This document shows, in pieces, positions 39,416-61,144 of a DNA stretch of 64,000 bases. The position numbers were made by a program, and so were the translations under genes. Location: positions 19,240,167 to 19,304,166 of the forward strand of contig OZ023214.1 in NCBI GenBank assembly GCA_963995525.1. The letters run 5' to 3'. This DNA is from Escarpia spicata. Lineage: Eukaryota > Annelida > Polychaeta > Sabellida > Siboglinidae. The notes under the pieces are model-generated. The model was given only the letters and a program-made list of their open reading frames with translations, searched no databases and was not told the DNA's origin. Positions within the stretch are counted from its first letter, which is position 1. Each line of letters opens with the position of its first letter.

Positions 39416-40203
39416 ATCACAGTTTGCCTATGTCAGAAACAAGATTATTTGCGTGACCTCCGTTAAGTTCTGCCGTTGTTAAAAGTGTTAATTGTTGATA
39501 TTTGAATGACGTATTACTGCATGGCATTTCCTAGATCAAACATTCTTGCATAAAATTGTAATTTTTTTATTTTTGCCTATGTTCTTGTCATAAAAAAACT
39601 TGGGGGGGACAGAATTTCAATGAAATATACGACGAAATGTCTGAACGCTCCACGTATTCGGCATTCAATTTTTGATGGCGTGACGGAGTTTTTGCTAGGC
39701 AATAGATTACGTGATTGATATGTCATTTCTATGGTACTGTTGTTCAGCTTTTCAAGTGGGCACATTTCACAAGATGATGGCGCCACCTGGCGAATGTGAA
39801 AATAACTATACAAAGGAAGCATAATGTTGAAACGTAATTAATTTTGCCACTTTCATTTTAACAAAACAACAATTCCAAGTCTCACTTAAATATGGTATTT
39901 ATTGAAATTTCCTTTTCACATCTCTTGATTAATGACATCTCTGGTATAATTCCCTATTTAACAATCTACATACTGTGCCATAATATAAATACACTATGCC
40001 TCTGGCACTCCAATAACATACAGAAAGCATTTCTCCAAACAATGACCCTGATTGACTGTATTCCATACAGTATGAAATATATGCCCCAATATCACTGACA
40101 GGGGATCACAAATATCTAAACGCACTGAAGTAATACAACTTAAAAGATTACCATGCCGTTACTGATTTGTAAACAAATAAGTTATTTATACACAACTAAC
40201 TTT
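39416..40203. other. AT-rich spacer left of the truncated CR1 copy
   Basis: No gene. At about 39,670-39,730 the minus strand resembles a phrase next to both duplication units (CACGTGAC, then TTGCCTAGCAAAAACTCCGT, at about 18,475-18,510), a dispersed repeat of unknown kind. Confidence 0.45.
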
Positions 40204-42793
40204 GGGAGGTGGAGTTATTTTATATATTAAAGAATCTATTCAGGCTTATGAAATAAAATTAGAAAGAGAAGCAGATTGCGAAGAAGCTGTTTGGTGTAAC
40301 ATAGTTACAGGAAACTCAACGTTGACGGTTGGGTTGGTTTATCGAAGTCCAAACATAAGCATAGAAGAGAATGAAAAAATACAAAACGCTATAAGGGAAG
40401 TAAGCAAACGGGACTGTATTATTATGGGGGATTTTAACCATGGGCATATACAATGGAAATCTCTACAGAGTATGGGGAGAGAGGACCACAAGTTTTTAGT
40501 TTTAGTTCAAGATACATTCCTTTCTCAACATGTGCTAGAACCAACCAGGGGTGAGAATGTGTTAGACATAGTTTTGTCCTCACAGAATGAATTAGTTGAC
40601 AATGTCAAGATATGTGAGCCACTGGGGAGTAGCGATCACAACCAGATACATTTTACCATCAAAGTAAAATCAGAAAGGAATAGCAAAAAGCAGTATAGGA
40701 GAAATTTCCACAAAGGAAGGTATAAGGACATGAGGAAATATTTAGCAAAGATAGACTGGAATAAGACACTGAAAAATAAGACGGCAACAGAATGCTGGAA
40801 TATATTAAAGAGTGAAATTAAGTGCATAATCGATAAATTTGTACCCTTCAAAAACCAAGGAAAACGGTCCAAAAAGAAACACTTATCGAAAGAAGCCATT
40901 AGAAAAATTAAGTATAAACAAATGATGTGGAAGTCATATAGATGTACTGGAAATGATGAAGACTACAACAATTATAAAGAAGCACTTAACCAAGCTACAG
41001 CTGAAATTAGAAATTCAAAGAGAAGCTATGAACAACAATTAGCTAGTAATATAAAACATGACAGCAAGAGTTTTTATGCGTATGTTCGAAGCAAACAGAA
41101 AGTTCAAGATAAGGTCGGTCCTCTAGAAGATAGTGCTGGAAATATGATATCAGAGGGATTCATAATGGCAGAAGACCTGAATGAGTACTTTAGTTCAGTG
41201 TTTACCAGGGAAGATATTAGTTCACTGCCAATACCAAAGGCTAAGTTCAAGGGGGCAGATTCAGACTATTTAGGACAATTAATTGTAACCCCGGAAATGG
41301 TAGCTAAGAAAATAAGGGCTATGAAGGAAAATAAATCACCTGGAGTGGATGGTATTCCACCCAAACTACTATTGGAAATTGTAGAACAAATTAGCATACC
41401 ACTTGCAACAGTTTTCAACTTGTCATTAGAAGAGGGAGTGGTTCCTTTAGAATGGAAAGAAGCAAACATTATACCGTTATTCAAAAAAGGTTCGAGAAAC
41501 AAGTCAGAGAACTATAGACCAGTGAGTTTAACATCAGTGATTTGTAAATTATTAGAAAGACTAATTAAAGATCACATGGTGGATTTTCTTGCTAAACAAA
41601 ACTTGATAAACCCATCTCAACATGGTTTTTTTAAAGCGAGGTCATGCTTAACAAATATGTTATGTTTTTTGGAAGACATCACTAAGTGGGTAGATGAGGG
41701 AACACCAGTAGATATCGTCTATTTAGATTTTCAAAAAGCTTTTGACAAAGTACCACATCAAAGATTACTGCTTAAACTAAAGGCCCATGGCATAGGAAAT
41801 GGTATAATAAACTGGATAGAACAATGGCTGATTGACAGAAGACAACGTGTAGTAGTTGATGGGGAGGCTTCAAACTGGAAATCGGTATTGAGTGGGGTAC
41901 CACAGGGATCAGTATTAGGTCCTATATTATTCTTAATATACATCAACGATTTGGATGATGAAATAACAAGCAAGGTGTTGAAATTTGCGGATGATACAAA
42001 AGTGTTTAGAAGGATTAAAAGTGATGGAGATAGACAGCATTTACAAGATGATCTTGACAGGTTGATGAAATGGTCTGAAAAATGGCAAATGATGTTCAAT
42101 TTTGGGAAATGTAAATGCCTCCACATAGGACATGGGAACGAAGAGGTAGAATATACAATGGGGGGTACTGTACTAAGTACTACTGTAAAAGAAAAGGACT
42201 TAGGGTTAACCGTTAGTGCTGATATGAAGATTTCAGAGCAGTGCGGAATTGCAGCTTCAAAGGGAAATCAAATCCTTGGATTAATTAGGCGAAACATAAC
42301 GTATAAGGAAAAAGAGCTAATAATACCGCTGTACAAAACAATAGTTAGGCCTCATTTAGAATATTGTATTCAAGCGTGGAGGCCATATCGCAGGAAGGAC
42401 ATAGATATGCTAGAAAGAGTGCAGAGGAGAGCAACTAAAATGATACAAAATCTGAGGGATCTTAGTTATGAAATACGCCTAAAAAAATGCGGTTTAACAA
42501 CACTAGAGACCAGGAGATTGAGAGGAGATCAGATAGAAGTGTTTAAAATATTGAAGGGTTATGAAAATATTGATAGAAATATGTTTTTCTCAGTTAAGAA
42601 AGATAGAAGGACTAGAGGACATGATCTTGCATTAGCAAAGGAGCAGAGTAGATTGGATATAAGAAAGTTTTCATTTTCACAAAGAACTGTAAATGAATGG
42701 AACAGATTACCTGCTGATTGTGTGGGTGCTAGTAGCGTGAATATGTTTAAAAATAAAATCGACACATACCTCAGACGGGCGGGATACACATAG
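40204..42793 (+). CDS. 5'-truncated CR1-type ORF2 (endonuclease/reverse transcriptase)
   Basis: An open frame of about 863 codons starts inside the endonuclease at the point matching 22,246 of the other copy, so the first catalytic block and ORF1 are missing and there is no proper start codon. It contains IIMGDFNHGH and GSSDHN (endonuclease), [23 protein letters not shown], the catalytic KFADDTKV, and C-terminal LERVQRRATKM, ending in YLRRAGYT. No internal stop or shift, which suggests a young insertion. It differs from the first copy at scattered residues. Without a start and the N-terminal endonuclease it should be inactive. Confidence 0.93.
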
Positions 42794-43612: not shown

Positions 43613-46600
43613 CTAGAAAACACAAGAGCATTACATTATTACAATGAGAGCATTACATTATTACAATGACATATCATTACGATACTACACCATCAGTGTA
43701 CTGTGTTACTTCAACATTAGAGCATTATGTTTTACAACATTAGAGAATTACTTTACTACAACATCAGAGTATTACATGAAAAGCATCAAAGCATTATGTT
43801 AACATACAAACGGAGCATGACATTATACATTACTACAACATCAAAACATTACATATATAACATCAGAGCTTCAGTATTCTGTCAAACGGACCAAATTTGC
43901 GACAGCATTTTAATATGCATCTTTAATATGGAAAGATCATACCAGTAAATGAAAAGAAACTTTTTTGTGCAACGACACATACATGTAATTCTTGATACAT
44001 ATTTATTTATATATTTTAGTACTGTTAGTAGTACTGAAAACAAAATAGATGGGCGGCCAAGGCGATGAATTGTGACTTTCGTGGGCATTTTTTTAACAAA
44101 CAGCCAACCATTTTAGATGTTCTCCATATACGTCACTGATTATGGGTTATTGGACTTTCTGATTTTTTTTTTTTTGGTCAGCAAACAGGTTTTATGTCAA
44201 ATTTGACATAAATTTGATAAAAACCGTATTGTGGCTCTATAAAACGTAAAAATAATGTTAAACATTTTCCAAACACTTTAATATTTCTCTACATAGGCCA
44301 CATATTACAGAATCAGACTTTATGTCGATCAGATTTGATATTTTTGACCAGATATGGGTCATTTGTGTTCAGTAAAGTGCACATTTTGACCAAAATGTTA
44401 TTAAGCAACAAAATATGTGAACAAAATCTAAAGTGGTTGGAAAGTTGTAACCCACTGATTCCATTCTGAAAAATACTGGTTAACATAGTTGCTTAACTAC
44501 ATTTTGGGCAAATTTTGAATTTTCTGGACACAAATTATCCATATCTGGCCAAAAAACACAAATCTGACCGACAAAAACTCTGATTCTGTAATGTGTGGCC
44601 TATGTGGAAAATGTGTAACATTGTTATTATGTCTTATAGAGCCACGATATGGTTTTCATCAAATTACTTTCAAATTTTACGTAAAAACACGTTTTCTGTC
44701 ATAAAAATCAAAAATCAGAAAGTCCAACAACCCATACCATAATCAGTAACGTATATAGAGAACATCTAAAATGGTTGGCAGCTTGTAACAAAAAATGCCC
44801 ACAAAATTTGTTCTGAGCACTTTTCTAGTCCTTGGCCGTCCGTCTAAAATAATTAATTGCATAACCCAGCATCATAGTTTAAGACTTAGAAAAACAAAAC
44901 TGACAATTATATGAGTTATATAATCCATGCACATCCTATTTCTGTGCTAATACTTAAATAAAAATCATTGTCAGTCTAACCAAAGAATTTATTAGGTTAA
45001 ACCATCACCATGCAAAACTAGCCCTGGCTGATCCCCTACGCGAAGTGCGGAAGTTAGCCGAGTCAAACTAGTAATTGACTTCGCCAGTCGAGACTGCATC
45101 ACCTGTGAGAACAACGCAAATACCCGCCCCAATTTGAAGACGGATAAACGACTTCTGGGAATCCCATTATAAAATGACCCGTTCGCCCATTAGCACGAAC
45201 AGCTGAACGGTATTGTGTATTCGAATAATTGCTTCTATTTCCTAAACATTGCATGTAACATGAGCCACGGTTGGTTGAAATTAGTTTTATTATGACCACC
45301 TGACCTGAGTAGATCTACTGATCTAGTGAGCGATGGATTTGATAGGCTGAGCTTAAATTAAGAGTTTCGCGAAGCGATCAGCCAGGGGGGGTACTGCTGG
45401 CTGGCACTGACGTAATCAGCAGCAGCGACCCTTGGCACGCGAGGATGGGTTAAACTGAACTGAACAGGTGGGAATAATTCAATAGGAAACAGTATGATCG
45501 TTTATTTTCGAGAAAATTGCACCATGTCCAACACACTCCCTCGGACATGAAAGCGTGACTGTGGAAGGGGGAAGAGGGGGGTGGGAGAACACACCTTTGT
45601 TCCTGCTCCTCTATCACACGGTGCAACTCTGAGAGGTTCGGGATGCGTCCGAGCAAATGGAGAATCTTCACGTACAGCATGCCAAACCAGATCAACCAAC
45701 TCTCAGATCTGTCACAGACGATCACGTGTTTACAAAGTGCAGCAGCAACATTTGTTGTAGTATGACATGAGAAGTTTAATTTACTTTCATATTTATATTA
45801 CTATTATTAATGTTTTATTATTATTTATTTTTCCAGGTAAAACAATAGCATTATCGATAAATGTATAACTTCCATTAAACTGCCTTAATTGTAAATATTA
45901 AACATGTATGTGTACATATGGACAATTTGTGTGTATGTCTGTGTGTGTGCATGTGTGTTAGTTATTATATTAACTAATTTAACAATCAATCAAATATATA
46001 TTGATATCACGGATTATTATTATTAGCGTACCAAATAAATGCCCAATATACAGCCTCATTTTGCATTTATTGTGCTAATAATACAAGAAAGGCTAGTACT
46101 GAAGAACATCACATTAAATACAAGTTATTACATGTTAATTTCATGTATGAAATAAAGGAATTTTGATTATTTGTTTACTACTTTTTTTATAGCAACTCTA
46201 CAGTAAGCATTTATATATATATTATTCTGTAGTATTCAATTAAAACTTTAATGCTTTGTTATTCGACATACTAAAGGTACAACATACCACAACACAAATC
46301 TACAGGTCCCTCTGAATATCCAAATTCCTCGGATAAATACCTGTAATGTATCTGGTGCACGAAACCCTAAATACACACCCATTTGTCATGCACCTTATGG
46401 GGTTAACCCACCCTTCATACTTACTTGAGTTTATAGTCAAACACAAGTCTCTCCCAGAATGACGCGAGCCGGCCCTGCAGTGTCAGCTTCACTTCTATGC
46501 CGATACTTGCCCCAGAGATGGCGCTGTCAGAAGAAATCATCGTCAAATCCCATCAGTCTGACAAGCTTCTGTATTTTTCTGCATCCGTTTTATTATTAAA

Positions 46601-49600
46601 AATTAAATATAAAAAAACAACACCATATCAGCTTCTTTTGATGTTTTTTTTTACAAAACAATATATACTATAGATGTTGTAAATTTAAATTGCACTGTAA
46701 TTGTACATTTAACTTCCATATCTGTCTAAATATATCGAGCAGGGGAACATTTAATTACTGAATGGGCTGCCTGACTAATTCTTTTTAGCACACAACATGT
46801 ACCTCAATTAATTCAACTTTATTTCAACAGACAAATAAACAAAAATAAAGTAGTGATGCCATTACTATATTGCTTAAATGTACAGTGCTGGATGGAGACA
46901 AGATTGTAATACTTATATATATATATTATCTGCCCTATAACTTTGTATAATACATACCAATGCTTATTCACCATCTTATATTAACATTTTGAAATACACA
47001 CAAGTTGATTTGCAAATATGAACATCCTCCAGATGGCGCCACATACACATAGGCACAGAAGATGGTTTCCTGGAGTGTTCTTATATGCCATTTTAAAAAC
47101 ATTTACTCAAACCAAATTGGAATAATATTTAGAAATACTGTATAAAATCAGTACAAAAACCTTTAATTGGTAAGAACTCTACTGGATAATTAAAAAAATA
47201 TGAGCATTGTTTCTTTTCTGATGGGTCGCAGGTGAATCCCTGGAAGTTAGGTGCTCGGGAGGCAAAGCTTCTAGAAGGGAAAGCTTAATATACATACATA
47301 CACACTCGCTAGCTCAGTTATACTTAGATTGGCAAATGATTGCCACACTGACCACCGAGCCATGATGGTGTAGCGGTCAACTGGATGACCGTGGAGGCGG
47401 TTGATTGATCGGATCGTGTTCAGGTTTCTACAACAGAAGATGACACAATCACTCCCGATAAAACCCTTACAATCAGAGTAAATATTCCCCCAAACAAAAC
47501 ACACGTGTACAAAACCAAGCCTGGATTTGATTGCAACTGTAATTGGTTGTAATATAAATTAAGATGTAACCACAATGAAATCTGTGATGGTGAAACTATA
47601 ACTGTGTAAAGGATCGTATTGTAAGTTCTTAAGGTCCAAAAAAGGTACGCATTTAGCCCTGGTTCAAATTGTTCCCACCAATACTAATAATAAGTATTGT
47701 ATGAAATATAATTATAATCTTAATCACGTTACAGTAATTGAACTTAAAATTGTTACAGAGGTGTGACAGTGAGATGTGTGGAAGAAACACAGTGAAAAGT
47801 AGCAGAATGAGAGAAGGTATAAAGGAGATAATTAACCAACAAAGGACGCAAGCATGTACAAACTACTAGAAAATTGAGAAACGCCAACAGCCTGTGCCTA
47901 AATGGTGACCATATGAAAGGTGTTAGTGTTACAGGCAGTGGTGTGGATGGGTTTACGGCACAGAGTTGCAGCGGTTTAGTACAGTGCAACCTTGTGTCCA
48001 GATTAACCGTTTTTTTTCCAGAAAAACTACTCATGTACATCATGAGGCATATATTCGTTTAGAAATTCTATTCCCGACGAATAATTTCCGGATGCCAAGG
48101 TTTCCTTCCAAATTATTAGGGATTTGGGATCTTAATTAATGAGGTTCCACCGTAGTCGCAAACGTGCTGATCGAAGATCTTCCACAGACATTCTGAACTT
48201 CAGACCGAGAACGAATTGAGAACGTACCTAATAATTAGCAACAACGCCTGTGGCATGTTTCGAAGGACAGCCATGATTTCATCGAAATGGTGTTTTGCCT
48301 TTTCTCTCATGTATTCAAAGTCCTTCTCGGTCAACTGAGAGGGTAAATGAAGCGTCTCGCGGGCCAAAGGTCGCTGCACTAAGATCTCGCTGAAGATAAT
48401 GTGGTCTGAAAGCATCAGATCTTCGATCAGGGCCTTGCATGTTACTAGGGGTGTTGTGTGCAACAGGAAGTGTCACGGGAAATTTGCACCATTGGAAATT
48501 GTAGATATAAATCATCTTATAGACTGAAAGTAGTTCACTTGTTTAGGTCGATTTATAAAATGTATGTACAAAATGTACCAAAATGCATAAACCTTCCAAA
48601 ATCAGCAGTTAAAATCTAATATGCAGATAAAGGGAGTTATACACTCTGTTTTTCACTGCATGATTTGTGATAATTATCTTAATAGATAACTTAAATACAA
48701 AGTTAGTTCAATTGTATGTTTGCAGTATTATTATGCATTTTAGACAGCAAGTCTGTTGCAAATTTAAGCACTGCGGTGCAAATTTCCCGTACACAAATGA
48801 TCCAGACACAGTGTGGCATGGCACTTCACCTGCCTCCACTGGACCACCTCTAAATGCTTACGGCTCACCTAAATATGAGCAGCATACCACGCGGCATGTC
48901 TTTCATGGCTCGGAAGAACTTATCGTGGAAGTCCTGCATCTTCTCCTTCAGTTTGTTTTGTTCTTCTTTCGACATGTTCTTCCATATTTTGCGAGTGATG
49001 CGCTTCATGGGGCGTCTAGGGTGACTTTTGGTGTAAATTGGCCTCTGTACCAGTAGCATAGAGAAGGGGTACCAGTCTGGGACAGACGCAGCATCGTTTA
49101 CATCTCGTACTGAGCTGGCTACTAGTAATTGGTTCTATAGGTATCAGCCTCGCAATTACCTGTTTTGCCACAAGCCACCGAATAAGACGATAGCCTTGTG
49201 TTATATCAAACAAAAACTACTTAATTTTACTGTTCAACAATAAGGAGTGGTGAAAATGTTAATTAAACGCATTTTACAATTATCGATAGCAATTGCTAGA
49301 CGGTTTTTACTGCAGTTAGATAATCTTGACGTGGAAGAATATTTAACATATCTACAATAATTATCATTTAAAAAGCAGGGTTTCTATTATTTATTCGCTA
49401 AAAGTTTCGATAGAAACACAAAACAATCACATATAGACATTAAATAGTAGTTTCTTGAATGTCACTTTTAGAGACTACGTAGCACAACTTGTTTGCTTAC
49501 ATGAATATTTGTATTTTTGAAATGTTTATTTTAAGTGAACTAAACTTAGATGTATGTTTCTACTGAAACCAATTTTCTGTGATGTATAAAAGCATGTTTC

Positions 49601-52600
49601 TCTAGCACAAAACATCTAAGAGCACAGAAATGATGCAACCCATACGTAATTTACATTTACTACACACGGCATCTGCCCTATTGAACCCGTATGCAAACAA
49701 ATAAAATGGCTGACCTTGTACGCCAAGCTGTTTGGCATATTTTGCCATGCTGTCTTCATCTCTCAGAATGATGGCCTTGTAAAGTCGACACAAACTCACG
49801 CGGTTGGTCTCGCTCAGCGAGTCATACAGCCCGTGATCTAGCAAGACAAGTTGAGCCTTACCATCCTTCCCCTGTCGTACAAAAACTGCAACAAAAACCA
49901 CAGTCGGTAAACTACAGTGTAAATCCAAACACTTTTGTGCCCAGTGAACATGTCTAGAATCTTGATTAACAAGTTTTTCTAGAAAAATGAATCATGCGCA
50001 TAACGACGTATACACTCGTTTTGGAAATTCCATTCCCGTGAAGTGTTTTCCGGATAATCAGGATCATAATTAGTGTGGTTCCACTATAGTTCCAAATGTG
50101 CTGATTGAAGATCTACCCCATCTCCAAATTGACCTCTTGCTGTGCTCCAGTATGTTGGACCGCCATCTTGTTCTATTTATAGCATATTGCTCCGATGTCG
50201 GGCAGTGGCTGATGATTACACTGCTTGGCGTCAGACTGTATACAGAGGCGTTGGATGGGGCTGACAATAAGAGACACCAGCCTGCGGCTGAGAAGAGGAT
50301 GCAGCGCAAACAATACGCTGCACCACCAATGTCATCCTTTTTTCTGTTCTGGCTGCGGCAAGGACTGTCACTCCCAAATCTCCAGAAACTGACAACAGGG
50401 TGCACCATCTTTGTCTCTCGAGAATATGCACGGCCTACTACTACTACTTCGATGTCAACAGGGGAAGCATGGTATCATTTCTAATGTGATCACTTCACCT
50501 CTGCAGTAGTCTTACTCTCTTCTGCTGTCCTGTTCTCTCTTGGCGTAAAATCTACTAGACATTAACTTACATGGTTTGACCCGTAAACATGAAGTACAAA
50601 ATATTGTGCTTAGTCATGCTGAAACAATATTATAATGTTGTAGTCATGATATAAAAGACCATAATCACTAGCAGTAATGAGGTGATCATTTACTATTGCC
50701 TACACTGAATGTAGTGATCACTTACTGTTGCCTGGATGTGGGTCTGCGTGTACGAAGCCTGTGTGGAAGACCTGATGCGCAAAACACTCAATGAGTTTCT
50801 TGTTGATCTGCAAACCACCAATGAGAATAAACTAACTGACATATGCTAATCACACGTATGTCGTCACAAATGCTTCCAGTTCACGGAACCAACAAAAGTT
50901 CTAAGTAAATGTGACAACAGTTTTTATTGACAAATTATTTTTTAGTGCATCAATATCACTTTGAGTTGGTACTGGCCACTAATGTAGTGAAAACATTTAC
51001 CACTTGGCAAGCAATTGACGAAGATTATATCAAACTAAATGTATCTAGGTACAATCATAGAACACATGCGGACCATGGTAAGTAACTCCATAAAGCTCAG
51101 GTATACTAAGGTGCTTATGACTGGATTTGGGTCTAAAATAAAGAAACAGCAGAATCTCACAAAGTGGTCCTTTTGAACTGGCTAGCTAGTGTACGTTGCG
51201 CTTACATCTGCAAGGCCGATGCCCATCGCTGCAATGGCATCCACATTGCTGATCTTGCAACCATCGATGAACTCTGCCGTCAGCACCCTCTGTTGGAAAA
51301 AAGGTGACATACATCAGGAATGTATAACATGCAAACAGTCTGACACATTGGTGTGTGAGGTGTGTGTAACAAGTCACATACTGGTACTTTTTAAATATCT
51401 TTATATTAAAGGTAAGTAAAGGTAAGTTCTTATATAGTGCAGTATCCAGTCCTCAGACTGTTCAAAGTGCTTTACTCCCTGGCAGACCTGTTCAATCGAA
51501 TACCATCTCAACTTCTCTGGGAAGCATTCATCCACGCTGCAATTAATGCGCAAAGACTATTCGTACACAGGTAACCACCACTGTCTATAGCCAGGTACTT
51601 ATTCATACAGCTGAGTGAACTGAAGCAATGTAGAGTAAATGAACTTGCTCAAGGTTCAACACTGCCGCACAGCATTAGAACACGCATTCCCTCAGTCGAG
51701 AATCCGGAGCTTTTACCGCTGCGCTACTGTGCTCCACAAATTATATTGATTAAAACTAATTATATTATATCAATAGTTTTAATTTTACTTAATCTCAGTG
51801 TTTCCCCTAGTATATAACAAGCGAGGCGGGCTGCCTCGTCGTTTTTCTATGCCGCCTCGCCCAAAATATGCCAAAATTGCCACCTCGTAGCTACTTCATA
51901 CGCCCTTTTTTCGTTCTTTCACGGTAAATTCAGCATCGGTGAGCGGCGCGTAATGACACCACAAAGTCACTTATATTCCTGCAAAATCGCAGATTTATAG
52001 CGACATCGTTTAGCCGTCATTGGACAACGTGAAAGATAGCACTTGTCAGTTGTCCAATCACTGAATATTGCGGGATCCCCGGTGTCTCCAATGGTGACAC
52101 CTTGTGGAGTTTCGACATACTAGAAATCTAGACATTCATGTAAAATGGCGCCCAAACGGTAACTTGTGTTTTGGTTTATGACGGTGGTGCAGACTGAAAA
52201 CCGTGCAGACTGATGGCACTACGTCACTTGTCGACACTTGTGTCGAATGCGGACTCTTTTGAAGCCCAAAAAAAAACGTGTTTCCTAATCCTATTCACTG
52301 GTCGGTATTTTTATCGAATCCGGACCCTGTTGAAGCTCAAATAGCGAATTTGTTATTGACTCTGTCAGCGAGGTAACAATGCATAGGGTTAGTGCAAGAA
52401 AACATAACCATAACCAAGAACCAGTGGACAAGTGGAAACCACACCTCTGCTGAGTAGCAGAGTTAAAAAGGAAACCACACCTCAACATGATGAAACAATC
52501 ATGATTACTGACTTTTATCAATCATGATTACTACATTTACGAGTAGTGTCTTGTTGTTTTATATCTTCCCCTCTATATTCAAGAGTACATGTTAAAACAT

Positions 52601-55600
52601 ACCTCAGAATGCACCATTTTAAAGCTAGGTGTAAAACAATCTCCGGGGGAGCATGCCCCCGGACCCCCCTAGCAATGCTTCACGCCTGCGGCACTCACGT
52701 GCCCCACCCCTACCACCATTTCACCCAGGGGAAACACTGAATCTGTAACAATGCAATGTTAAAATTTCATATAATTTCTCTTTCTGATACCATTTAAGTT
52801 TTTCACAGTGAAGTTTACCCTTTTTCTCTCGTAACATTTCGACTGTCTGGCTTTCAGTTGTCATCATTAGACTCCACTTGATGGTGATACCATCTTGTAG
52901 AATCAGTCTAATAATGACAACTGAAAGCTGCCAAATCATTATGATTGAAAAATGTACGTTTGACTAAGAACATCTATAGAAAAAACATTTAAACCATCCA
53001 GTCTAACAAACCTCTTCATGCACGTAAAAAATGTCATATCCTGCAGACATAAATTTTTAATGAATGAGCTACCAGAAATACACCTGTCAAATAAACTTTT
53101 TATATGAGTGAGAAGTGGAGAGATAAGAAATTTAAAACAAATTTACTGTATTTGGCAAGATCCATAAACAAAATTGACAAAACCTACTTAATCCTGCCTA
53201 TACTTGGCGAGAAGATCAATAAAAAACCTACTTTACACTATCTATACCTGGTGAGAAGATCCCAAAAATATTCTCACCCTATCCATACTTGGTGAGAAGT
53301 TCCACTAAAAATGACCCTATTTAGACTTAGTTAAAAGATCCAGATAAATTTGCTTGACTTAAACTAACAGTGTACATCAGAGGAAGCCTTACTTTGGTAG
53401 TGTACTTCCAGTGAATCTTCGGTACATAGATGTAGTCTAGATGTCTAAGTTCTCGCATGCACCGCTCCCCATTCTTCGCTTCGTTCTCAAAGTCAAGCTC
53501 CTGCTCAAGTGTGCCTTTTAACCTCTACAAACAACATGGATCAAATGTGAACTGTTTTAACAAAACAGTACAAATCTTCTTTATAACAGGATGTCTGTGA
53601 GCATTGTTACAGGCAATTTGGCAGACAGTATAGCTTCAACATAATCATTATAGTCTTAAGAACATTATTTTAATAAACGAAAACCTAGAAACAAGACAGC
53701 CTCCCGACATAAAACACTATATTGTAGCCATTTCCCCGTGGGTCGTCTTCTTCCCTTCAAACCTGACTTACCTGCAGCACCCACCGGAAGCCAAACTTTG
53801 GATGAACCCACTGAATGAAACCAAGCAACAGCTCAAGAGTGAGGATGTCTCCATGGAAACGCTCCCTTAAGTCAATGTACTGAACCTGTCAACACATACC
53901 AACATTCCAAACTTGTCCAAAAAAATATGGTATAAACCACATATATATATATATATATATGACAGAGCTGTAATGTTCATATTTAATAACAATTACAACA
54001 ACAATAAAAGGACTTCGTTAGTGCCAACATCTGTGAAGATATACCAACGTTCAAAGTTTTTATATGAGGGGTCATTCACGTTCTCTGACCCTTGTACCTC
54101 CCCTGAATTAGTACTTTAAAATAAAATGGTAGATACGTTTCAAGTTGGCTTTTACAATCAAATAAGACTGCCATTCAGTCTTTACACTCCACTAGCAAAA
54201 ATGTGCAACTTTTGGTAGTGCTGCATAAATTTAGATGTGGAAGAGGGTATTTATTTGTGGCATTTGTTTGGGCAGTTTCTCCACAACGCAAGTGACATTT
54301 AGTTTTCCTAAGTGATTGGATTTTGTAGCTCGGGAATAATCACAGAAAACATGTGTAATGTTACGAACAATCGATTAATGTCCAATTATCATCCAGTATG
54401 AACCCTAAAACTGGTAAAAACCCTTAATAAAAAATAGGGACATTTATAAAAACTGAAGTTAAATTTCTTCTGGGGAGGTCACAGATGAAACTCTGAACGT
54501 TTGGCGCTTGAGAGGCAAAGTGTCTAGATGGAAAGGCTTATATATACATATATATACACACAGCTAGATTATAGACTGGCCGACCTTGACTGCGACAGTC
54601 TCTCCGGTGTGTGTGACAGCTTTGTGAACTTGAGCGAGGCTGGCAGCTGCTAGTGGCTCATCCTCAAACTCACGGAACATCTGGTGTGGAGTCATCCCGA
54701 AGTCCTCCTCAAACAGTTGAATCGTCTGTTCAACACAACCACCAACATTTCAAGTCATTATCTGTACAGTATATTTGACGAAAATGTATGTACATGTTCA
54801 TAGTAAGCATCAGAGGAAACTCTTCAAATGGCCAAGCGATGTTGACATATTTAATTTGTTGTGTATTTTGTTGGAGTAAACAAGACAAACGAGGGTGATC
54901 AAGTGATGTGGATCTCGCTCCACAAATGAAAGAGGATGAGCTTAGGCCAGAGCACGGTTTCACTGACATACTTATGAGCTCCTCCACCCGATATTGTTCT
55001 TTTAAAATCAGTGTTTTTTTGGTGAAAAATGTCACTACCAGGGTGCGGCACTGGCAGGCCTGGGGTAATAGTAATATCTCTAATATGTATAGTAACAATT
55101 ACAAATACTGAAGTAATAGGTTGAATAAAAACACAATGTAATAGTAATCAATGTAATAGTAATTGACCTATCACTTTTATATTACTATTGGACATTTCAG
55201 AGTTCAGTTTGAGTTGGTTTCCAGTTCTCCAGGAGGAGAACCTCACCACCTCCTCAGAACCTCACCACCTCCTCAGAACCTCACCACCTCCTCAGAACCT
55301 CCCCACCTCCTCAGAACCTCCCTACCTCATCAGAACCTCCCTACATCCTCAGTACTGCCATACCTCCTCAAAACCTTCCCATCTCCTCAGAACAGTGTCA
55401 CAGAAATAGTGTCCTATCTGACACTTTTGCATGTGTCACAGAAATAGTGTCCTACGTGACACGTTCGCCTGTGTCACAGAAATAATGTCCTCAGACTTAT
55501 TTTATTGCAATTTGAAAACACTCCTTAAATTTAACAACTGATTCTGTTTAATGATGGATTTTCCTTATCTAAGTGAAACTATCTTAGTGAAATGGTCTCC

Positions 55601-58600
55601 AGTTCTCCAGGAGGAGAACCTCCCCACCTCCTCAGAACCCCCCCACCTCCTCAGAACCCCCCACCTCCTCAGAACCTCCCCACGTCCTCAGAACCTCCCC
55701 ACCTCCTCAGAACCCCCCCACCTCCTCAGAACCCCCCCCCCCACCTCCTCAGAACCTCCCCACCTCCTCAGAACCCCCCCACCTCCTCAGAACCCCCCCA
55801 CCTCCTCAGAACCCCCCACCTCCTCAGAACCTCCCCACCTCCTCAGAACCTCCCTACTTCCCCAGAACCTCCCTACCTCCTCTGCCTCCCGTTTGAGAGC
55901 CTTGTCCTGCAGTACCACCAGTGTGTCCGTGTACTCGGCCGGAAGAATATGGTTCATGGTTGCCAGTCCCTGGCCCAGCTTCACGTATAACCCTCCGTTG
56001 CCTAGACAACCCGCAAGTATCCTCTCTGCTGCCCTCTTGTGGCAGCCTTTGATCATCAACACCCATTCCTCTGAGTCCTGTCGGCGTAATAATACTCACT
56101 AGTTAACAAACACAGGGCGGCTGTTATCGTCACTACATGTTATGTTGATATTTAAAAACTTGTTTGCACACTGGCGCCCTCTAGAGGAGAATGATTCACC
56201 GCTCAATGAAGGAAAAAAAACATAGCTTATCGCAAACACATTCTTTGTTGTTGTGTGTTATTTAGATACACCACCAGCCTCTGAGAAGATACTGTTATAA
56301 TGTTTAGCACATCAAACCATATATGGTTACATCACCAACCTGCATCAGCACAACACTAACTAACCTGAGAGTATTCAGTAGATACCCATTGATCACGGTT
56401 GGGTTCAATTGTTATTGCATAATTTGTCATTACTTACAATGTTACTTTTTTTATAACAATGTGATTTTAATTAGGATTCGTCTGTAATTTTGATGAAAAA
56501 AAATGTAGTTGTACTCAACTTATGTTTAATCCATTTACTTACCTCCTCTATACCACGTAATTGCCATTTGTAGTCAAACGATATCGCAATGCCAATTACA
56601 AAGCACCTGCAACACAAAAGCCAAACAGGAATTATTTATGACATTAATATTTTCGTGTCAGTAGACATAAATATTATTTCTAGTATTCACACGGTTTGTG
56701 TTTATACTGGTATTTACATATCTATTGGCATTTTCAAGTCGAACAATTCAAGACTGCTTAGTAATGATTACATTTAATGGAATTACGTTTCCGTGTCACA
56801 GTTATGACCACTTTGGGGTCAATAAAAAGAACATATTAAAAAGGTTACTTTTCATTAGCTAACTTTTCAATCTCATTACTGAATGTCATATTATCAACAA
56901 TAATGCTAGAATCAAATGCATTTTTGTTACACGTATATTTCTGTCCACTGAAGAAGGTTGTGTGAAGCATTTGAAAAACTAGTGTTTGTTTTTGAGGTCA
57001 TTCAAGCATGTCTATATTTCAACAGCTGTATTTGGGTCTACAGAGCAAACAAACTGAACTGATACAACAGTAACAAATAGTAATGACAAACTTTTATAGC
57101 GCCTAAATCCACAGGAATCTGAGCTCAGAGGCGCAACATACAAGAATCATTGGGCAAAATCATTAACAGGGACAAGCAAAAGTCGTCATTAGAGCAAGGG
57201 ACCGCCGAAGGTTAGGGTGGGAATGCAATTTCAAATAAATAAGTCTTCAATTTTTTATGAAAGGTATTTATAGTCTCAGATGATTTTAAATCGATAGGGC
57301 GTTGATTCCAGATGTTGGGTGCAGCTACAGAAAAAGCACGTTTACCGATATTAAGCGTGGTTTTCGGAACAAAAAGTCGTTGCGAAACAGATGATCTGAG
57401 ATTCCTGGGGATATCGGAAAAACGAAGGAGACTATTTTACTGGAAAATAGTTAACAACCTTGTTTCATTGTTGGTTTGTGCCAATAATAATTAGATCAGT
57501 TTTATGTGGATTTAGCTTAAATTTACTTGCTTCCATCCACAGCAAGATGTCAGTGATGTTTCACCTGAAGAATCGTGTGAACCCCTGTAGAAACACCCTG
57601 TGTCGCCTCTTCTCAAATGAAGTGAGAGATGTGTAGTAGAGTCCTCCGATTACAGGTGTTGCTACTGATACATACACAGCTACCCTGGCCTTCCTAAGGA
57701 ACGGTCGACCAGGGTTTTCCTTCACTCTGGGTCTGGCTGAGAATCGCCTCCATGACTGCAGCCTGTGCAGTGTGCCATCCGCCTTCTACGAGAACAAAAC
57801 AAGAATGCATATAATGAAGTTAAAAATGTCTGCTTTAGTTGAATACATTTCACATATAGGACATGGAGGTGCAGCTTAGAAGCATATAACTTGGTAGTAA
57901 ACTCACACATGGAGTGTCCCATTTCATTTGCATTTTTCACATGATTTCAGTATAATATATATAGTGACAACTTTCAATTAACACATCTTTAACAATAGGA
58001 ATATTAAGAAAAGACCTTTCGAATGAATATGTTTTTATACTGCCAGAATAAAATAAAAAGACACAACTGAGTGATGAACCTCATCTAAACCAGACATGGG
58101 GTCAAATGCATTTGTATTTGAAAGTATCTAAATACTTTTTTAAAGTATTTGAAATGTTCAAATACTTTCAAATACTAATATAATAAATAAATGACATATC
58201 TTGTTTGAATTCTTAAGAGTTGAGCAATTTTACTGTCATTTGGCAATTCACCACTTTTACGCTAAGAAATAATGGCAAAGTAATGCCATCACCTTACTTG
58301 TCAGCTGTCACTGTGGTGCAATTCATAATGCGTGTGTGTCTAGCTGCAAGGTGTTGCATTCTTGTCATGTGTCGATATTAGGTAGATATGCTGAATATAT
58401 GCATTGCTGATACGTGTAACCAGATGCCAGTTTTGAGATAATAATAGATGTGCACCCAAGCCTTCGCCACCAAGCACCTATGAGGAACAATATGGTACAT
58501 CTATTCATTTTTCAACTTGACCATTGAAATTGACATACTGACTGATCATTACTCATGCAAAAACGATTATTATGCATTTATCACTTATTTCAATAAACAA

Positions 58601-61144
58601 ATTATATTTGTAATTGTTTAATTCTAATTAATTACTATAGTAAATGTTGTTATAACAACGTCTAGGCAATTGTAATAAAATACTTAGTAATAAAATATTG
58701 AAATTAAATTAATAACTGTACTACACCCTAACACCGCTTCCAAATAGCAGTTTACGTGTCTGTTAGGAAAATATTACAAAATACAGATTGGGATGTTATT
58801 ACACATTAGATAAGCCTAGCTGTTCCAATCATCACAACAAATAATGTATTACATTAAAAAGACAAATTAGAATATATATACTAAACAAATATTTGTACAA
58901 ATAAACTGATTTCATATTTCTAATTCAAAGGAAAAATATATGTATTACGATTGCAATTGAAAAATAAAAAACACCAAACAGTGGCGCCACCAAACAACAA
59001 TAGATAGTGCCACTGAATGAAGCCTGGGTAATCGAGGCTATTTTGTTGCATTTGAATAATAACTTATATTAACTTTTCGAAACTAGATTCACAAATACTA
59101 ATGCATGCTTTTAACCCATTTACACATAAGCTTGTGCTAAGGAAATACAGCCAGTTCCTGACCATAACATTTAAACAAAAATTATTTTGTCAGCATCAGG
59201 AAATGACAGGTCTTTATTTAAAATGGATGTAACTTTATTATAACCCAATGCACTTTTAAATGTGATAAGTCACTTTGTTATAATTAGATCGCTTCAGCCA
59301 ATGCGTTACAAGAGTTGTGTAATGACTATGCCATACATCATATTTGATTTATTTCCAACACTGTTACATTGAAAAATAGGAAGCTGATGTGCTTACAATT
59401 CATAATACCTTACCTTAGGATACCTTAGGACTGTTCTGATCGCAGGATCCTGTTGGTTCCTCAATGATCAGATCTTCTTCTTCGGGGTCTAGTATTAAGA
59501 GTTTGTGTTTTCCGGTTCCAGTGTTTAATGTTAGTGGGGCTTCATAGTCGTATAATATCTCCTGGGTTGACCAGAATTTATCAAGGCGGTTTTTAAATGA
59601 ATTTATTGATTTTGCTTGTATTACTGAATCAGGTAAACTGTTCCATGGTTCAACCACTCTAAGCGGGAATGCATTTTTTCTTATGTTTAGTTTTGCTCTT
59701 TGGTTGAACAGTTTAAGGGAGTGTCCTCTGTTACTGGATCGTGATGCCACATCCTCCCACTTAGGAAGGTTTGGTGCAGATTTGTTGTCATATATGTAAT
59801 GCATTATTTTATACACTTCAATCATGTCTCCTCTTAACCTACGATATGTTAATGTGGGTAACTTAAGTAATTTTAGTCTTTCAATATATGATAACTCCCT
59901 CATACCAGGTAGTTCTTTTGTGGCTCTTCTCTGGACATTTTCTATGGCTATTTTATGTTTCGTCTTAAATGGATACCATATTGCTATTGCATAATCTAGG
60001 TGGGATCTAACCATAGTCTTGTATAGTGGCAAGAAAGTGTATGTATCTAAGAATTGAAAAGTTCTTCTGATTACTTTTGTCATTCTGGTTGCTTTATTAA
60101 CCACTTGGTTGATGTGATCATCAAAAGAAAGTTTTGAGTCAATAATTACTCCTAAATCTTTTTGTTTGTCTGTGGTGACAAGAGCATGTTTGACATTATT
60201 TGTTGCCATAAAATATTTACTTTCACCAATATTATTTTTCCCAATTTCCATGTGTACACATTTATCAGGATGGAATTTTAACAACCACTTGTCGCTCCAT
60301 TGTTCTAGTATGCATAAATCATGTTGAAGTACATCCTGATCATCTATATGTGTTATTGTTCTAAATATCTTTATGTCATCAGCAAATAGAAATGTATTTG
60401 AATTTGTTAGATCTGGGAGGTCATTAACATATAGAACAAAAAGTAAGGGTCCTAGAACGGAACCCTGGGGTATCCCTGATATTACCTCTTTCCAGCTAGA
60501 CTCGTCTCCATTTACTGAAACTTTTTGTTTTCTATCTGTGATGAATGATTCTATCCAGTTAATCAGTTCTTCTGAAATGTTGAAGCTTTTTAATAATGAA
60601 TGCTCTTTTCCATCAAACCTGTTTGCCAATAAAGAATATTTTCACTGCTATCAATAGAGCCTTTATTTATAGAGGAACTGTTAATGTTTGGGCAAAAAAG
60701 AATATGTACTCGTTTATTAACACAATGGATGGGCAAATAACCACTGCATTTACGTAATCCTGTTCTGGCCAAGTTCATGTGACTATATTATCGCCCATAT
60801 AGGCAGAATAAACACATATTTAACGTCGATATATTTCAGTCAAGATGCTTTATCACACAGACAAATAACTGCATGTGTCATAGTCGGTAAACGTATTAAT
60901 TATCTGTGGCTAAAGTACCATGATTAAATAAATCGTGAGTCTGATGTCTTTTATTTCACAACTTGACAGCTCCCGGCGACGGTATCAATAAAACATCGCA
61001 AACACACACGCCCTGCTCCAAACCGCCCTCCATGCTACATACCTTCAACTGTTGCCTAGCTAGTGATGCATAACCAAATTTTATATTTTTTACAGGAAAA
61101 TGACGGAGTTGTTGGCATATTTTACATAATCCACAACCAAACAT
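43597..61144 (-). CDS. ADCK5: ADCK5-like aarF-domain (UbiB/COQ8 family) putative kinase, 14 exons
   Basis: Predicted mitochondrial atypical kinase of the ADCK5 type; substrate unknown in the family. Fourteen minus-strand exons, all in phase, predict 558 residues (human ADCK5 is of similar size). Residues 1-34 are basic and amphipathic (presequence-like); a hydrophobic segment lies at about 69-86 ([18 protein letters not shown]). Family marks: KLGQG (162-166), the AAAS loop (222-225), the lysine of VAVK (243), ELDFENE (290-296), catalytic HADPHPGN (373-380) and metal-binding LLDHG (395-399). ADCK5-like wording runs on through [17 protein letters not shown] and [11 protein letters not shown]. 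Exon 11 has a second version. Introns hold many transposons. Confidence 0.93.
43618..43878. repeat. degenerate tandem repeat in ADCK5 intron 13
   Basis: Diverged copies of a unit around AACATCAGAGCATTACAT, roughly 30 bases each, AT-rich. Confidence 0.7.
44048..44844. mobile_element. 797-bp near-palindromic DNA element
   Basis: The left arm (GGGCGGCCAAGG, AACCATTTTAGATGTTCTCC, ATTATGGGTTATTGGACTTT and onward) is inverted in the right arm almost to the centre near 44,440. Flanking TA on both sides fits a TA-target element such as Tc1/mariner relatives. No transposase. An RNA copy would fold into a hairpin with arms of nearly 400 bases. Confidence 0.88.
44994..45456. mobile_element. TIR element in ADCK5 intron 13
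   Basis: Left GGTTAAACCATC with CCCTGGCTGATC and CGCGAAG; the right end inverted gives AGTTTAACCCATC with CCCTGGCTGATC and CGCGAAA. About 460 bp, no coding frame. It lies 150 bases from the palindromic element. Confidence 0.55.
46425..46523 (-). CDS. ADCK5: ADCK5-like exon 13
   Basis: 99 bases, acceptor CTTCTGACAG, donor GTAAGT. Encodes [20 protein letters not shown] and [12 protein letters not shown]. Confidence 0.88.
47356..47427 (-). CDS. ADCK5: ADCK5-like exon 12
   Basis: 72 bases, acceptor TCTGTTGTAG, donor GTGGTC (weak). Encodes [20 protein letters not shown] and IMA, phase 2 to 2. The donor was chosen because only it joins exon 13 in frame. Confidence 0.85.
48050..48186 (+). repeat. 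dispersed repeat in ADCK5 intron 11
   Basis: Diverged direct relative of 49,995-50,118: GAAATTCTATTCCCGACG, TTTCCGGATGCC, GAGGTTCCACCGTAGTCGC, GTGCTGATCGAAGATCT. It lies just downstream of exon 11a in the transcript direction. Confidence 0.6.
48228..48405 (-). CDS. ADCK5: ADCK5-like exon 11a
   Basis: 178 bases, acceptor ATGCTTTCAG, donor GTACGT, phase 1 to 2. Encodes [20 protein letters not shown], the [20 protein letters not shown] segment and [16 protein letters not shown], closest to other ADCK5 proteins as I know them. Confidence 0.92.
48869..49076 (-). CDS. ADCK5: ADCK5-like alternative exon 11b
   Basis: Acceptor TCTGTCCCAG, donor GTGAGC, 208 bases, entry phase 1 and exit phase 2 exactly as exon 11a. 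Encodes [20 protein letters not shown] at the start, a very basic middle ([14 protein letters not shown]) and [10 protein letters not shown] at the end. Start and end are similar to 11a ([14 protein letters not shown] and [10 protein letters not shown]); the middle differs and is ten codons longer. Best read as a duplicated, mutually exclusive exon. Confidence 0.82.
49715..49885 (-). CDS. ADCK5: ADCK5-like exon 10 (DHG metal site)
   Basis: 171 bases, acceptor TTGTTGCAG, donor GTCAGC. Encodes [20 protein letters not shown], then [20 protein letters not shown] and [13 protein letters not shown] replaces the DFG of ordinary kinases. Ends in phase 1. Confidence 0.94.
49995..50118 (+). repeat. dispersed repeat in ADCK5 intron 9
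   Basis: GGAAATTCCATTCCCG, TTTTCCGGATAATCAGG and GTGGTTCCACTATAGTTCC with GTGCTGATTGAAGATCT recur in diverged form at 48,050-48,185. Possibly the end of a non-autonomous DNA transposon; no termini defined. Confidence 0.6.
50726..50807 (-). CDS. ADCK5: ADCK5-like exon 9 (catalytic loop)
   Basis: 82 bases, ends in phase 1, donor GTAAGT. Encodes [18 protein letters not shown] and VHADPHPGN, the UbiB-family catalytic loop with its Asp and metal-binding Asn. Confidence 0.95.
51206..51289 (-). CDS. ADCK5: ADCK5-like exon 8
   Basis: 84 bases, phase 0, acceptor TTCCAACAG, donor GTAAGC. Encodes [20 protein letters not shown] and AMGIGLAD. Confidence 0.93.
51415..51740 (-). mobile_element. tRNA-derived SINE, copy c, in ADCK5 intron 7
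   Basis: Full-length relative of the copies at 34,620 and 35,520. The minus-strand head begins GTAGCGCAGCGGTAAAAG; the B box is decayed (GTGTTCTAATGC). Tail ACTGGATACTGCACTATATA. Confidence 0.88.
51796..52739. mobile_element. hAT-like non-autonomous DNA element
   Basis: 944 bp bounded by CAGTGTTTCCCCTAG on the left and its inverted partner CCAGGGGAAACACTG on the right. AATCT is directly repeated on both flanks. CAG...CTG ends are typical of hAT elements, whose target duplications are usually 8 bp; here five bases are clear. No transposase frame. It lies in intron 7 of the ADCK5-like gene. Confidence 0.8.
53105..53345. repeat. degenerate tandem repeat in ADCK5 intron 7
   Basis: Four or five diverged copies of a unit near 45 bases with CTTGGTGAGAAGATC and CCTATA cores. 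Confidence 0.6.
53393..53524 (-). CDS. ADCK5: ADCK5-like exon 7
   Basis: 132 bases, phase 0, donor GTAAGG. Encodes [20 protein letters not shown] and [14 protein letters not shown]; the ELDF-E segment is the family's helix next to the active site. Confidence 0.94.
53772..53885 (-). CDS. ADCK5: ADCK5-like exon 6
   Basis: 114 bases, phase 0, acceptor TTGACAG, donor GTAAGT. Encodes [20 protein letters not shown] and [11 protein letters not shown]. Confidence 0.94.
54585..54725 (-). CDS. ADCK5: ADCK5-like exon 5 (AAAS loop, VAVK)
   Basis: 141 bases, phase 0. Encodes [20 protein letters not shown], then [16 protein letters not shown] and GETVAVK. The alanine-rich AAAS replaces the glycine-rich loop of ordinary kinases. 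Donor GTCGGC is weak but forced by the reading frame. Confidence 0.92.
54953..55600. mobile_element. TIR-like element (GTTTCACTAA family) in ADCK5 intron 4
   Basis: The left end CGGTTTCACTGACATACT with inner GAGCTC, and the right end TTAGTGAAATGGTCTCC, are diverged family ends. Three copies of a GTCACAGAAATAGTGTCCT phrase, shared with the TPPP-cluster elements, lie inside, as does one minisatellite array. Confidence 0.5.
55228..55398 (-). repeat. second array of the same minisatellite
   Basis: Same unit as at 55,607-55,890, about eight copies, preceded by the same TTCTCCAGGAGGAGAACCTC phrase on the plus strand. The two arrays are separated by about 200 bases containing GTGTCACAGAAATAGTGTCC repeats. 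Confidence 0.9.
55607..55890 (-). repeat. 19-bp purine-rich minisatellite touching the exon 4 splice donor
   Basis: On the minus strand the unit TTCTGAGGAGGTGGGGAGG repeats about 14 times with length variants. The exon 4 end plus donor (GAGGAG then GTAGGGAGG) matches the unit and forms its upstream edge, so the array seems to have spread from the splice site into the intron. Confidence 0.9.
55877..56077 (-). CDS. ADCK5: ADCK5-like exon 4 (KxGQ motif)
   Basis: 201 bases, phase 0 on both sides. Encodes [20 protein letters not shown], then [17 protein letters not shown] and the [20 protein letters not shown] segment. The KxGQ motif marks the COQ8/UbiB family. The donor GAGGAG/GTAGGG is the first member of a minisatellite in the intron. 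Confidence 0.93.
56543..56606 (-). CDS. ADCK5: ADCK5-like exon 3
   Basis: 64 bases between acceptor GTGTTGCAG and donor GTAAGT. Encodes [20 protein letters not shown] plus a final Glu; ends in phase 0. Confidence 0.9.
57085..57430 (-). pseudogene. L2-like LINE 3' fragment in ADCK5 intron 2
   Basis: The minus strand encodes [34 protein letters not shown] and [14 protein letters not shown] then TAA. This is the usual C-terminus of L2-group reverse transcriptase proteins. After the stop come CGCCTCTGAGCTC and GGATTTAGGCGCTATAAAAG, a 3' end resembling the local SINE tails. Confidence 0.8.
57565..57785 (-). CDS. ADCK5: ADCK5-like exon 2 (transmembrane segment)
   Basis: Acceptor TTCTCGTAG, donor GTGAAA, 221 bases. 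Encodes [18 protein letters not shown], then the hydrophobic segment, then [20 protein letters not shown]. The last codon is split and completed by exon 3. Confidence 0.88.
57786..59401. other. ADCK5 intron 1, downstream part
   Basis: AT-rich intron. A short inverted phrase lies at about 58,110-58,180 (TTTGAAAGTAT and ATACTTTCAAA), perhaps an end of a DNA element. Nothing else supported. Confidence 0.45.
59402..60655 (-). mobile_element. 5'-truncated CR1-like LINE of another subfamily
   Basis: The minus strand has an open frame of about 400 codons (59,415-60,629). It starts inside the reverse transcriptase at [20 protein letters not shown] and contains [20 protein letters not shown], the catalytic [30 protein letters not shown] and [20 protein letters not shown]. 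It ends [14 protein letters not shown] then DQNSPKVS. The stop lies within terminal repeats CCTAAGGTAT and CCTAAGGTAA, so there is almost no 3' untranslated part. No start codon or endonuclease remains. It lies in ADCK5 intron 1, same strand. Confidence 0.9.
60656..61042. other. ADCK5 intron 1, upstream part
   Basis: No feature supported between the LINE 5' end and exon 1. Confidence 0.45.
61043..61144 (-). CDS. ADCK5: ADCK5-like exon 1 (start, presequence)
   Basis: ATG opens [16 protein letters not shown] and continues to ARQQLK before the donor GTATGT. It is 102 bases and ends in phase 0, which fits exon 2. Basic residues without acidic ones suggest a mitochondrial presequence. It lies far upstream, beyond a LINE fragment, so this first exon is less certain than the others. 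Confidence 0.65.

What the first reader, a model, noticed from the sequence alone, without database searches (positions are those of the whole stretch)
48228..49076. Mutually exclusive exon pair in an ADCK5-like kinase gene
Exons 11b (48,869-49,076) and 11a (48,228-48,405) lie in tandem, 463 bases apart. Both have GT-AG sites, the same entry phase 1 and exit phase 2, and similar ends (8 of the first 14 residues agree; both close with MP...LLI.R). Joining both shifts frame and meets TGA about 31 codons into 11a; skipping both gives GAA ACC TGA. Only one at a time yields a full protein. The 11b middle is strikingly basic, so the two isoforms would differ in a surface next to the kinase core. I know of no such pair in ADCK5 genes, but I could not search.
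Basis: partly seen in the sequence, partly recalled or inferred. Interest (0 to 1): 0.8.

Follow-up and report, generated by a model that had tools for sequence, protein, structure and literature searches.

The report
Ancient swappable exon in mitochondrial kinase
The two neighbouring exons look like a genuine either/or pair in the animal gene ADCK5, shared by molluscs, annelids, a ribbon worm and a brachiopod, so one gene has apparently made two versions of this poorly understood mitochondrial kinase-like protein for a very long time.

Summary
In an ADCK5 gene on the minus strand of a 1.06-Gb animal genome, exons 11b (49,076-48,869, 208 nt) and 11a (48,405-48,228, 178 nt) lie in tandem with AG/GT sites and the same phases; including both, or neither, gives an early stop. 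Among 125 proteins fetched, b-type segments occur in 18 named species of four lophotrochozoan phyla and three unnamed transcript-sized records. In nine species, b and a models from apparently the same contig differ at this exon. Of 67 segments in a tree, 19 b form one side of a branch against 48 a, support 100/99.9: one origin is favoured. A model of the Owenia b protein places the exon in the C-lobe region of a COQ8A-like fold; b adds 10 residues, net positive in 20 of 21 rows. NCBI models already call several of these isoforms X1/X2, but seven literature searches found no description of the pair. Not shown: RNA reads in this species, or any functional difference. Two inverted repeats around exon 11a are a candidate splicing switch, untested for conservation. 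Verdict: real, ancient, a new member of a known kind.

The parts
48869..49076 (-). Alternative exon 11b (70 residues, b-type)
   Evidence: AG/GT sites, open frame, phases; b-type relatives in four phyla
48228..48405 (-). Alternative exon 11a (60 residues, a-type; the type also found in arthropods, Priapulus, hemichordates, amphioxus and fish)
48406..48868 (-). 463-nt intron between 11b and 11a
   Evidence: only itself found in a genome search
49715..49885 (-). Exon 10: shared upstream exon with the LLDHG motif, ends in phase 1
47356..47427 (-). Exon 12: shared downstream exon (NLNTIR...), entered in phase 2
46425..46523 (-). Exon 13
   Evidence: splice sites and translation; matched to homologue C-termini by eye
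45595..45708 (-). Exon 14 (its end, and any later exon, inferred)
   Evidence: matched to homologue C-termini by eye
50726..50807 (-). Exon 9 (HADPHPGN)
51206..51289 (-). Exon 8
53393..53524 (-). Exon 7
53772..53885 (-). Exon 6
54585..54725 (-). Exon 5 (VAVK)
55877..56077 (-). Exon 4 (KLGQG)
56543..56606 (-). Exon 3
57565..57785 (-). Exon 2 (N-terminal part; upstream exon with the start codon not resolved)
48475..48790 (-). Perfect 16-nt inverted repeat, arms 48,475-48,490 and 48,775-48,790, inside the 11b-11a intron; candidate RNA stem
48167..48430 (-). Perfect 14-nt inverted repeat, arms 48,167-48,180 and 48,417-48,430, enclosing exon 11a; candidate loop-out stem

Best explanation
11b and 11a are a working pair of mutually exclusive exons made by one tandem duplication of an ADCK5 exon, no later than the common ancestor of molluscs, annelids, nemerteans and brachiopods (supported by comparison). 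Each mRNA carries one of the two. Because both exons enter in phase 1, leave in phase 2 and have lengths of 1 mod 3, transcripts with both or neither run into a stop upstream of later junctions and should be destroyed by nonsense-mediated decay (stops shown; decay inferred). The exon encodes a helix, a loop and a long helix in the C-lobe region of the UbiB-family kinase-like fold (model). The b version lengthens the loop by about 10 mostly net-positive residues and lacks the Glu of F.EI that all a-type rows compared keep. Most likely the two isoforms share ATP-site chemistry but differ in what their C-lobe touches, a partner, substrate or the membrane, and are chosen by tissue or stage (inferred).
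Against: No RNA evidence for this species was available. b evolves faster than a (0.417 against 0.605), and the window's b is only 29-47% identical to those of ten species. The relatives' isoforms are mostly automatic models. For dating, the tree does not say whether b arose in the lophotrochozoan stem or earlier: holding b with lophotrochozoan a is not rejected, p-AU 0.317. Several taxa show a only among the rows seen (oysters, Mytilus, Octopus, Helobdella, Dimorphilus); lost and unseen cannot be told apart. The structural alignment gives only first and last aligned residues, so whether the exon's own residues pair with COQ8A was not shown, and the b loop is modelled with pLDDT 62-71. a rows too are net positive in this loop on average (+2.1 against +4.9 in b). 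Nothing here measures a difference in function.
Confidence: 0.87

Rival explanations
1. 11b is a decaying relic in this lineage: the pair worked in the ancestor, but here only 11a is spliced in.
For: 11b is less conserved than 11a and unusually basic, +11 against 3 to 8 in the other 20 b rows.
Against: Open over all 208 nt with the usual 70-residue length and intact AG/GT sites. Six columns are invariant in an alignment of 11 b segments that includes the window. 47% identity to Haliotis b, the highest of ten species.
Confidence: 0.07
2. The pair works mainly as an off switch: joint inclusion or skipping is the regulated event, lowering ADCK5 by nonsense-mediated decay, and the b protein matters little.
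For: Joint inclusion gives a stop 87 nt before the 11a/12 junction, and skipping gives one in the third codon at the exon 10/12 join.
Against: A pure poison exon need not keep protein sequence; b keeps F5, M61, P62, I68, F69 and R70 in 11 of 11 rows from four phyla and the window and a near-constant length.
Confidence: 0.08
3. The exon was duplicated separately in different phyla and the copies converged.
For: [quoted passage not shown] The segment tree has only 60 columns and two very long b branches, Tubulanus and Lingula.
Against: 19 b segments lie on one side of a branch with support 100/99.9, and a and b are no more alike within than between species.
Confidence: 0.03
4. The b isoforms in relatives are gene-prediction artefacts.
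For: Most named records are automatic models; the Paralvinella model joins b to part of a (P0003), which looks like an artefact.
Against: Unbroken b frames in three transcript-sized lgn records; protein-level conservation between phyla that no predictor would create.
Confidence: 0.02

Closest known systems
JNK (MAPK8/9/10) and p38alpha (MAPK14) mutually exclusive exon pairs
   Same: An either/or exon pair in the catalytic domain of a kinase; in JNK it lies in the C-terminal lobe, as here (PMC8586503, passage). For Mapk14, activity and substrate specificity are reported to change (PMC1431701, passage).
   Different: Typical protein kinases studied in vertebrates, against an atypical UbiB-family protein in lophotrochozoans; here the window's two exons differ by 10 codons and a and b share only about 26% of residues.
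Muscle myosin heavy chain MXE clusters across Metazoa (PMC3912159, search listing and start of abstract)
   Same: MXE clusters present in lophotrochozoans as well as arthropods (PMC5740500, passage).
   Different: A motor gene with several clusters; here one pair in a mitochondrial kinase-like gene.
[quoted passage not shown]
   Same: 377 (60%) of clusters there hold such exons, as here; the figure legend names frame shift leading to decay as one route of regulation.
   Different: No ADCK or aarF gene is mentioned in that paper's main text; supplements were not read.
COQ8A/ADCK3 and the UbiB family
   Different: Alternative C-lobe exons in COQ8A were not looked for here; ADCK5's own function is unsettled (PMC8346625, PMC12193262, passages).

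Membership tests
Mutually exclusive exon pair | Neighbouring exons with sequence similarity, same phase, both with splice sites | tested here: met
   (similarity significant only by profiles; alone E 0.445)
Mutually exclusive exon pair | Joint inclusion and joint skipping not productive | tested here: met
   stops in both cases; decay itself not tested
Mutually exclusive exon pair | Splice-junction reads from each exon that bridge the other, none joining them | not testable with these tools
   no reads held; indirect support from b and a models in nine relatives
Mutually exclusive exon pair | Both exons conserved in relatives | tested here: met
   at protein level; exon borders and splice sites of relatives not read
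ADCK5 (UbiB/ABC1 family) | Close sequence relationship to named ADCK5 proteins | tested here: met
   Tubulanus ADCK5 isoform X2 63% identical, E 4.9e-204; Lineus and Haliotis rubra ADCK5-like 64%
ADCK5 (UbiB/ABC1 family) | Pfam ABC1 domain | tested here: met
   shown for the Owenia isoforms P0002 and P0006, E about 4e-82; the window's own spliced protein was not scanned
ADCK5 (UbiB/ABC1 family) | Family motifs KxGQ, VAVK, HxDPHPGN, LDHG (motif roles recalled) | tested here: met
   [17 protein letters not shown] and LLDHG present in the spliced translation
ADCK5 (UbiB/ABC1 family) | Mitochondrial location and enzymatic activity | not testable with these tools
   not tested; the N-terminus of this gene is unresolved

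The most novel reading that the evidence does not exclude
Lophotrochozoans run two ADCK5 enzymes from one locus: an RNA structure around exon 11a, made of two inverted repeats whose exact arms occur almost only here in the genome, decides which C-lobe is built. The b form, with its basic loop and without the Glu of F.EI, acts on a different partner, lipid or membrane than the a form shared with other animals. The conserved switch would be a handle on what ADCK5 does.
Probability: 0.25. Interest if true: 0.72.

Novelty: new member of a known kind. Interest (0 to 1): 0.55.

Why it matters
ADCK5 is a poorly understood UbiB-family protein; passages of two papers describe its role as unclear or still to be settled (PMC8346625, PMC12193262). 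Two versions of one C-lobe segment, in the same gene, appear to have been kept through the history of several animal phyla while the rest of the protein is shared. That marks a surface whose identity matters and gives a ready natural experiment: swap the exon in a mollusc or annelid ADCK5 and see what changes. It also adds an apparently single-origin, very old MXE pair in a kinase-like fold, outside the vertebrates and insects where most cases I know of were described (recalled).

Tried and rejected
A likeness between the two window exons alone is not significant (E 0.445); it took profiles. Transposon origin of the 11b-11a intron: a genome search finds only itself, though that search skips very common words. 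Folding of that intron is better than shuffles (z -3.62, 0 of 100 shuffles as low; -3.97 with 60 shuffles), but 4 of 100 control tiles of the same length are as low, so overall stability is not special; only the perfect arms are. The inverted repeats: 16 nt or more appears in 1 of 12,000 shuffles of the intron (14 or more in 9, 12 or more in 141), and a 14-nt cross match between the introns around exon 11a in 35 of 12,000. These were noticed after looking, so they are weaker than they seem. The 16-mer with one mismatch allowed has 17 places in the genome, against 9 for the reversed control; the 14-mer has 3, as many as its control: neither is a multicopy word, but near copies of the 16-mer exist elsewhere. 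In the whole window the inverted-repeat scan gave 41 diagonals of 14 nt or more, 40 printed: 34 are AT-repeat runs, 6 are not, and 2 of those 6 are these. Two long-range intron pairs (I4, I13) were too weak to use. Dating the duplication by tree failed to separate stem-lophotrochozoan from older. Window identity: the gene tree groups it with Helobdella and three unnamed records (86% SH-aLRT, quick method), suggesting an annelid, not proven. Sequence searches of solved structures stopped before the exon, so the model was used. Papers: PMC9467408 lists mouse Adck5 in a table row marked RI (retained intron, as I read it), not as a pair; PMC1431701 lists Adck1 among loci with alternative 5' exons, in a row of type ME_exon; PMC9132324 holds ADCK2 in a gene list. 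Of PMC5740500, PMC12193262, PMC8346625, PMC7263595, PMC8586503 and PMC8746764 I saw passages only; all other papers were seen as search listings only. One search listed 30 of 104 papers that hold ADCK5.

Rows left out: of 125 proteins, 67 went into the segment alignment with the window's two segments, chosen by hand to drop near-duplicate lgn oyster rows and incomplete or odd models (such as P0003, P0116, P0117, P0125). Segments were called b if at least 68 residues long, so the length counts are partly by construction. Two further near-identical b rows were dropped before the tree. In one search Haliotis pairs b of H. rufescens with a of H. rubra. The profiles used 11 hand-picked segments of each type.

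Full report
What was checked. The window is G000 contig 11, a stretch of a 1.06-Gb genome, an animal's to judge by its ADCK5 relatives. On the minus strand, 57,785 to about 45,595 holds an ADCK5 gene, rebuilt here exon by exon with AG/GT sites; the exon with the start codon was not resolved. The best named ADCK5 hits of the 11a isoform are Tubulanus (63% identical, E 4.9e-204), Lineus and Haliotis rubra (64% each); an Owenia protein without a specific name is 62% identical. The translation keeps the [17 protein letters not shown] and LLDHG motifs. The gene appears single copy; the only other matches are three weaker ones on contig 8, probably another ADCK gene.

The observation. Either exon alone gives a continuous protein through exons 12, 13 and 14; 11b followed by 11a gives a TGA 88 nt into 11a, 87 nt before the next junction; neither gives ET-stop. 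With later junctions downstream, both wrong products should be decay targets (inferred).

Relatives. A search with the 11b region returned seven proteins, a whole-protein search with the 11a isoform 7,826, of which 120 were listed, and a search with the Haliotis b region 20. Reading the segments gave two classes, sorted first by length. The a class, 60 residues in 38 of 48 rows, is the only class seen here in fish, amphioxus, hemichordates, arthropods and Priapulus, and is also in lophotrochozoans. The b class, 70 residues in 17 and 71 in 4 of 21 rows, was seen only in lophotrochozoans: 18 named species (14 molluscs, two annelids, a nemertean, a brachiopod) and three unnamed records (hand tally). 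One of the 18, Paralvinella, was left out of the alignment because its model fuses b with part of a. Absence elsewhere is weak evidence: the searches need shared words, the b queries were lophotrochozoan, and one search listed only its best 120.

Same gene, one swap. In Owenia, Tubulanus, Ylistrum, Mizuhopecten, Patella, Aplysia and Biomphalaria the b and a models agree exactly before and after this segment; Biomphalaria's a model has 6 extra residues at the segment's start. Littorina agrees over the compared parts, and Pomacea too except its last residues. The paired records list equal contig lengths. NCBI names several of them isoform X1 and X2 (or X3) of ADCK5. So the swap borders in relatives coincide with the exon borders in the window.

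One origin. On 67 segments (65 proteins and the window's two), the 19 b rows lie on one side of a branch with support 100/99.9, in 99% of 200 bootstrap trees. The tree has only 60 columns, and Tubulanus and Lingula b have very long branches. Across 11 species and 55 pairs, a segments are 60.5% identical on average, b 41.7%, the rest of the protein 65.2%; a and b are 26.2% identical within and 25.8% between species. So b most likely diverged before these phyla split, shows no sign of homogenisation with a, and has stayed under constraint, though looser than a. Whether it arose in the lophotrochozoan stem or earlier is open: p-AU 0.317 for holding b with lophotrochozoan a.

How the choice might be made. 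The frame lock explains why wrong combinations fail, not how one exon is chosen. The intron between is 463 nt, too long for simple crowding of a donor and a branch point (under 50 bp in PMC5740500, passage). Two perfect inverted repeats stand out: 16 nt within that intron and 14 nt on either side of exon 11a. The exact 16-mer occurs twice in the genome, both here; the 14-mer three times, two here. Both stems form with predicted probability 0.90 to 1.0 per pair in a fold of 48,868-48,100. The second would loop out exon 11a together with a stretch ending 11 nt before it. Against this: one arm lies in a stretch with a diverged copy in the intron before exon 10, overall folding of the intron is not exceptional in the window (4 of 100 tiles), and no relative's introns could be read. 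I treat it as a lead.

Literature. Seven searches of open-licence papers found no description of this pair; the passages seen of PMC9467408, PMC1431701, PMC9132324, PMC5740500 and PMC12193262 do not mention it. Most subscription papers, preprints and supplements were not searched. The pair therefore looks unpublished but is visible in public gene models.

Verdict. The finding is right and understated: a mutually exclusive exon pair, apparently of single and very old origin, in ADCK5. As a kind it is known; as a case it is new to the literature searched. Interest 0.55, limited by the lack of any functional result.

Noticed in passing
55615-55882 (and 55237-55393): A 19-bp minisatellite (14 copies; a second array of about 8) starts at the last bases of ADCK5 exon 4; its unit, read on the minus strand, resembles the exon end plus donor site, so the 5' splice site may have been multiplied.
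   Followed up: partly
22240-24837 and 40181-42793: Two very similar long plus-strand frames that look like reverse transcriptases of non-LTR retrotransposons, probably recent copies (motifs recalled, not scanned).
   Followed up: no
59415-60641: A minus-strand 408-residue frame resembling another, more diverged reverse transcriptase, upstream of ADCK5 (not scanned).
   Followed up: no
47990-48200 and 49950-50130: Diverged copies of one element in the introns on both sides of the exon pair; the genome search found one further partial copy, on contig 8.
   Followed up: partly
48167-48790: Two of the six non-AT perfect inverted repeats of 14 nt or more seen in the window (arms within 463 nt) lie around exon 11a (one row of 41 not printed).
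   Followed up: partly
P0003 (Paralvinella palmiformis): The gene model joins exon b to an inner part of exon a, probably a prediction artefact.
   Followed up: no
P0103, P0107, P0115, P0121 (Sinanodonta, Mercenaria and two unnamed records): The b exon is one codon longer (71 residues) and reads Q-G-P where most others read Q-R-P; two scallops and Patella share QGP at 70 residues.
   Followed up: no
P0116 (Owenia fusiformis): A third Owenia model ends a few residues after exon b, possibly a retained intron.
   Followed up: no
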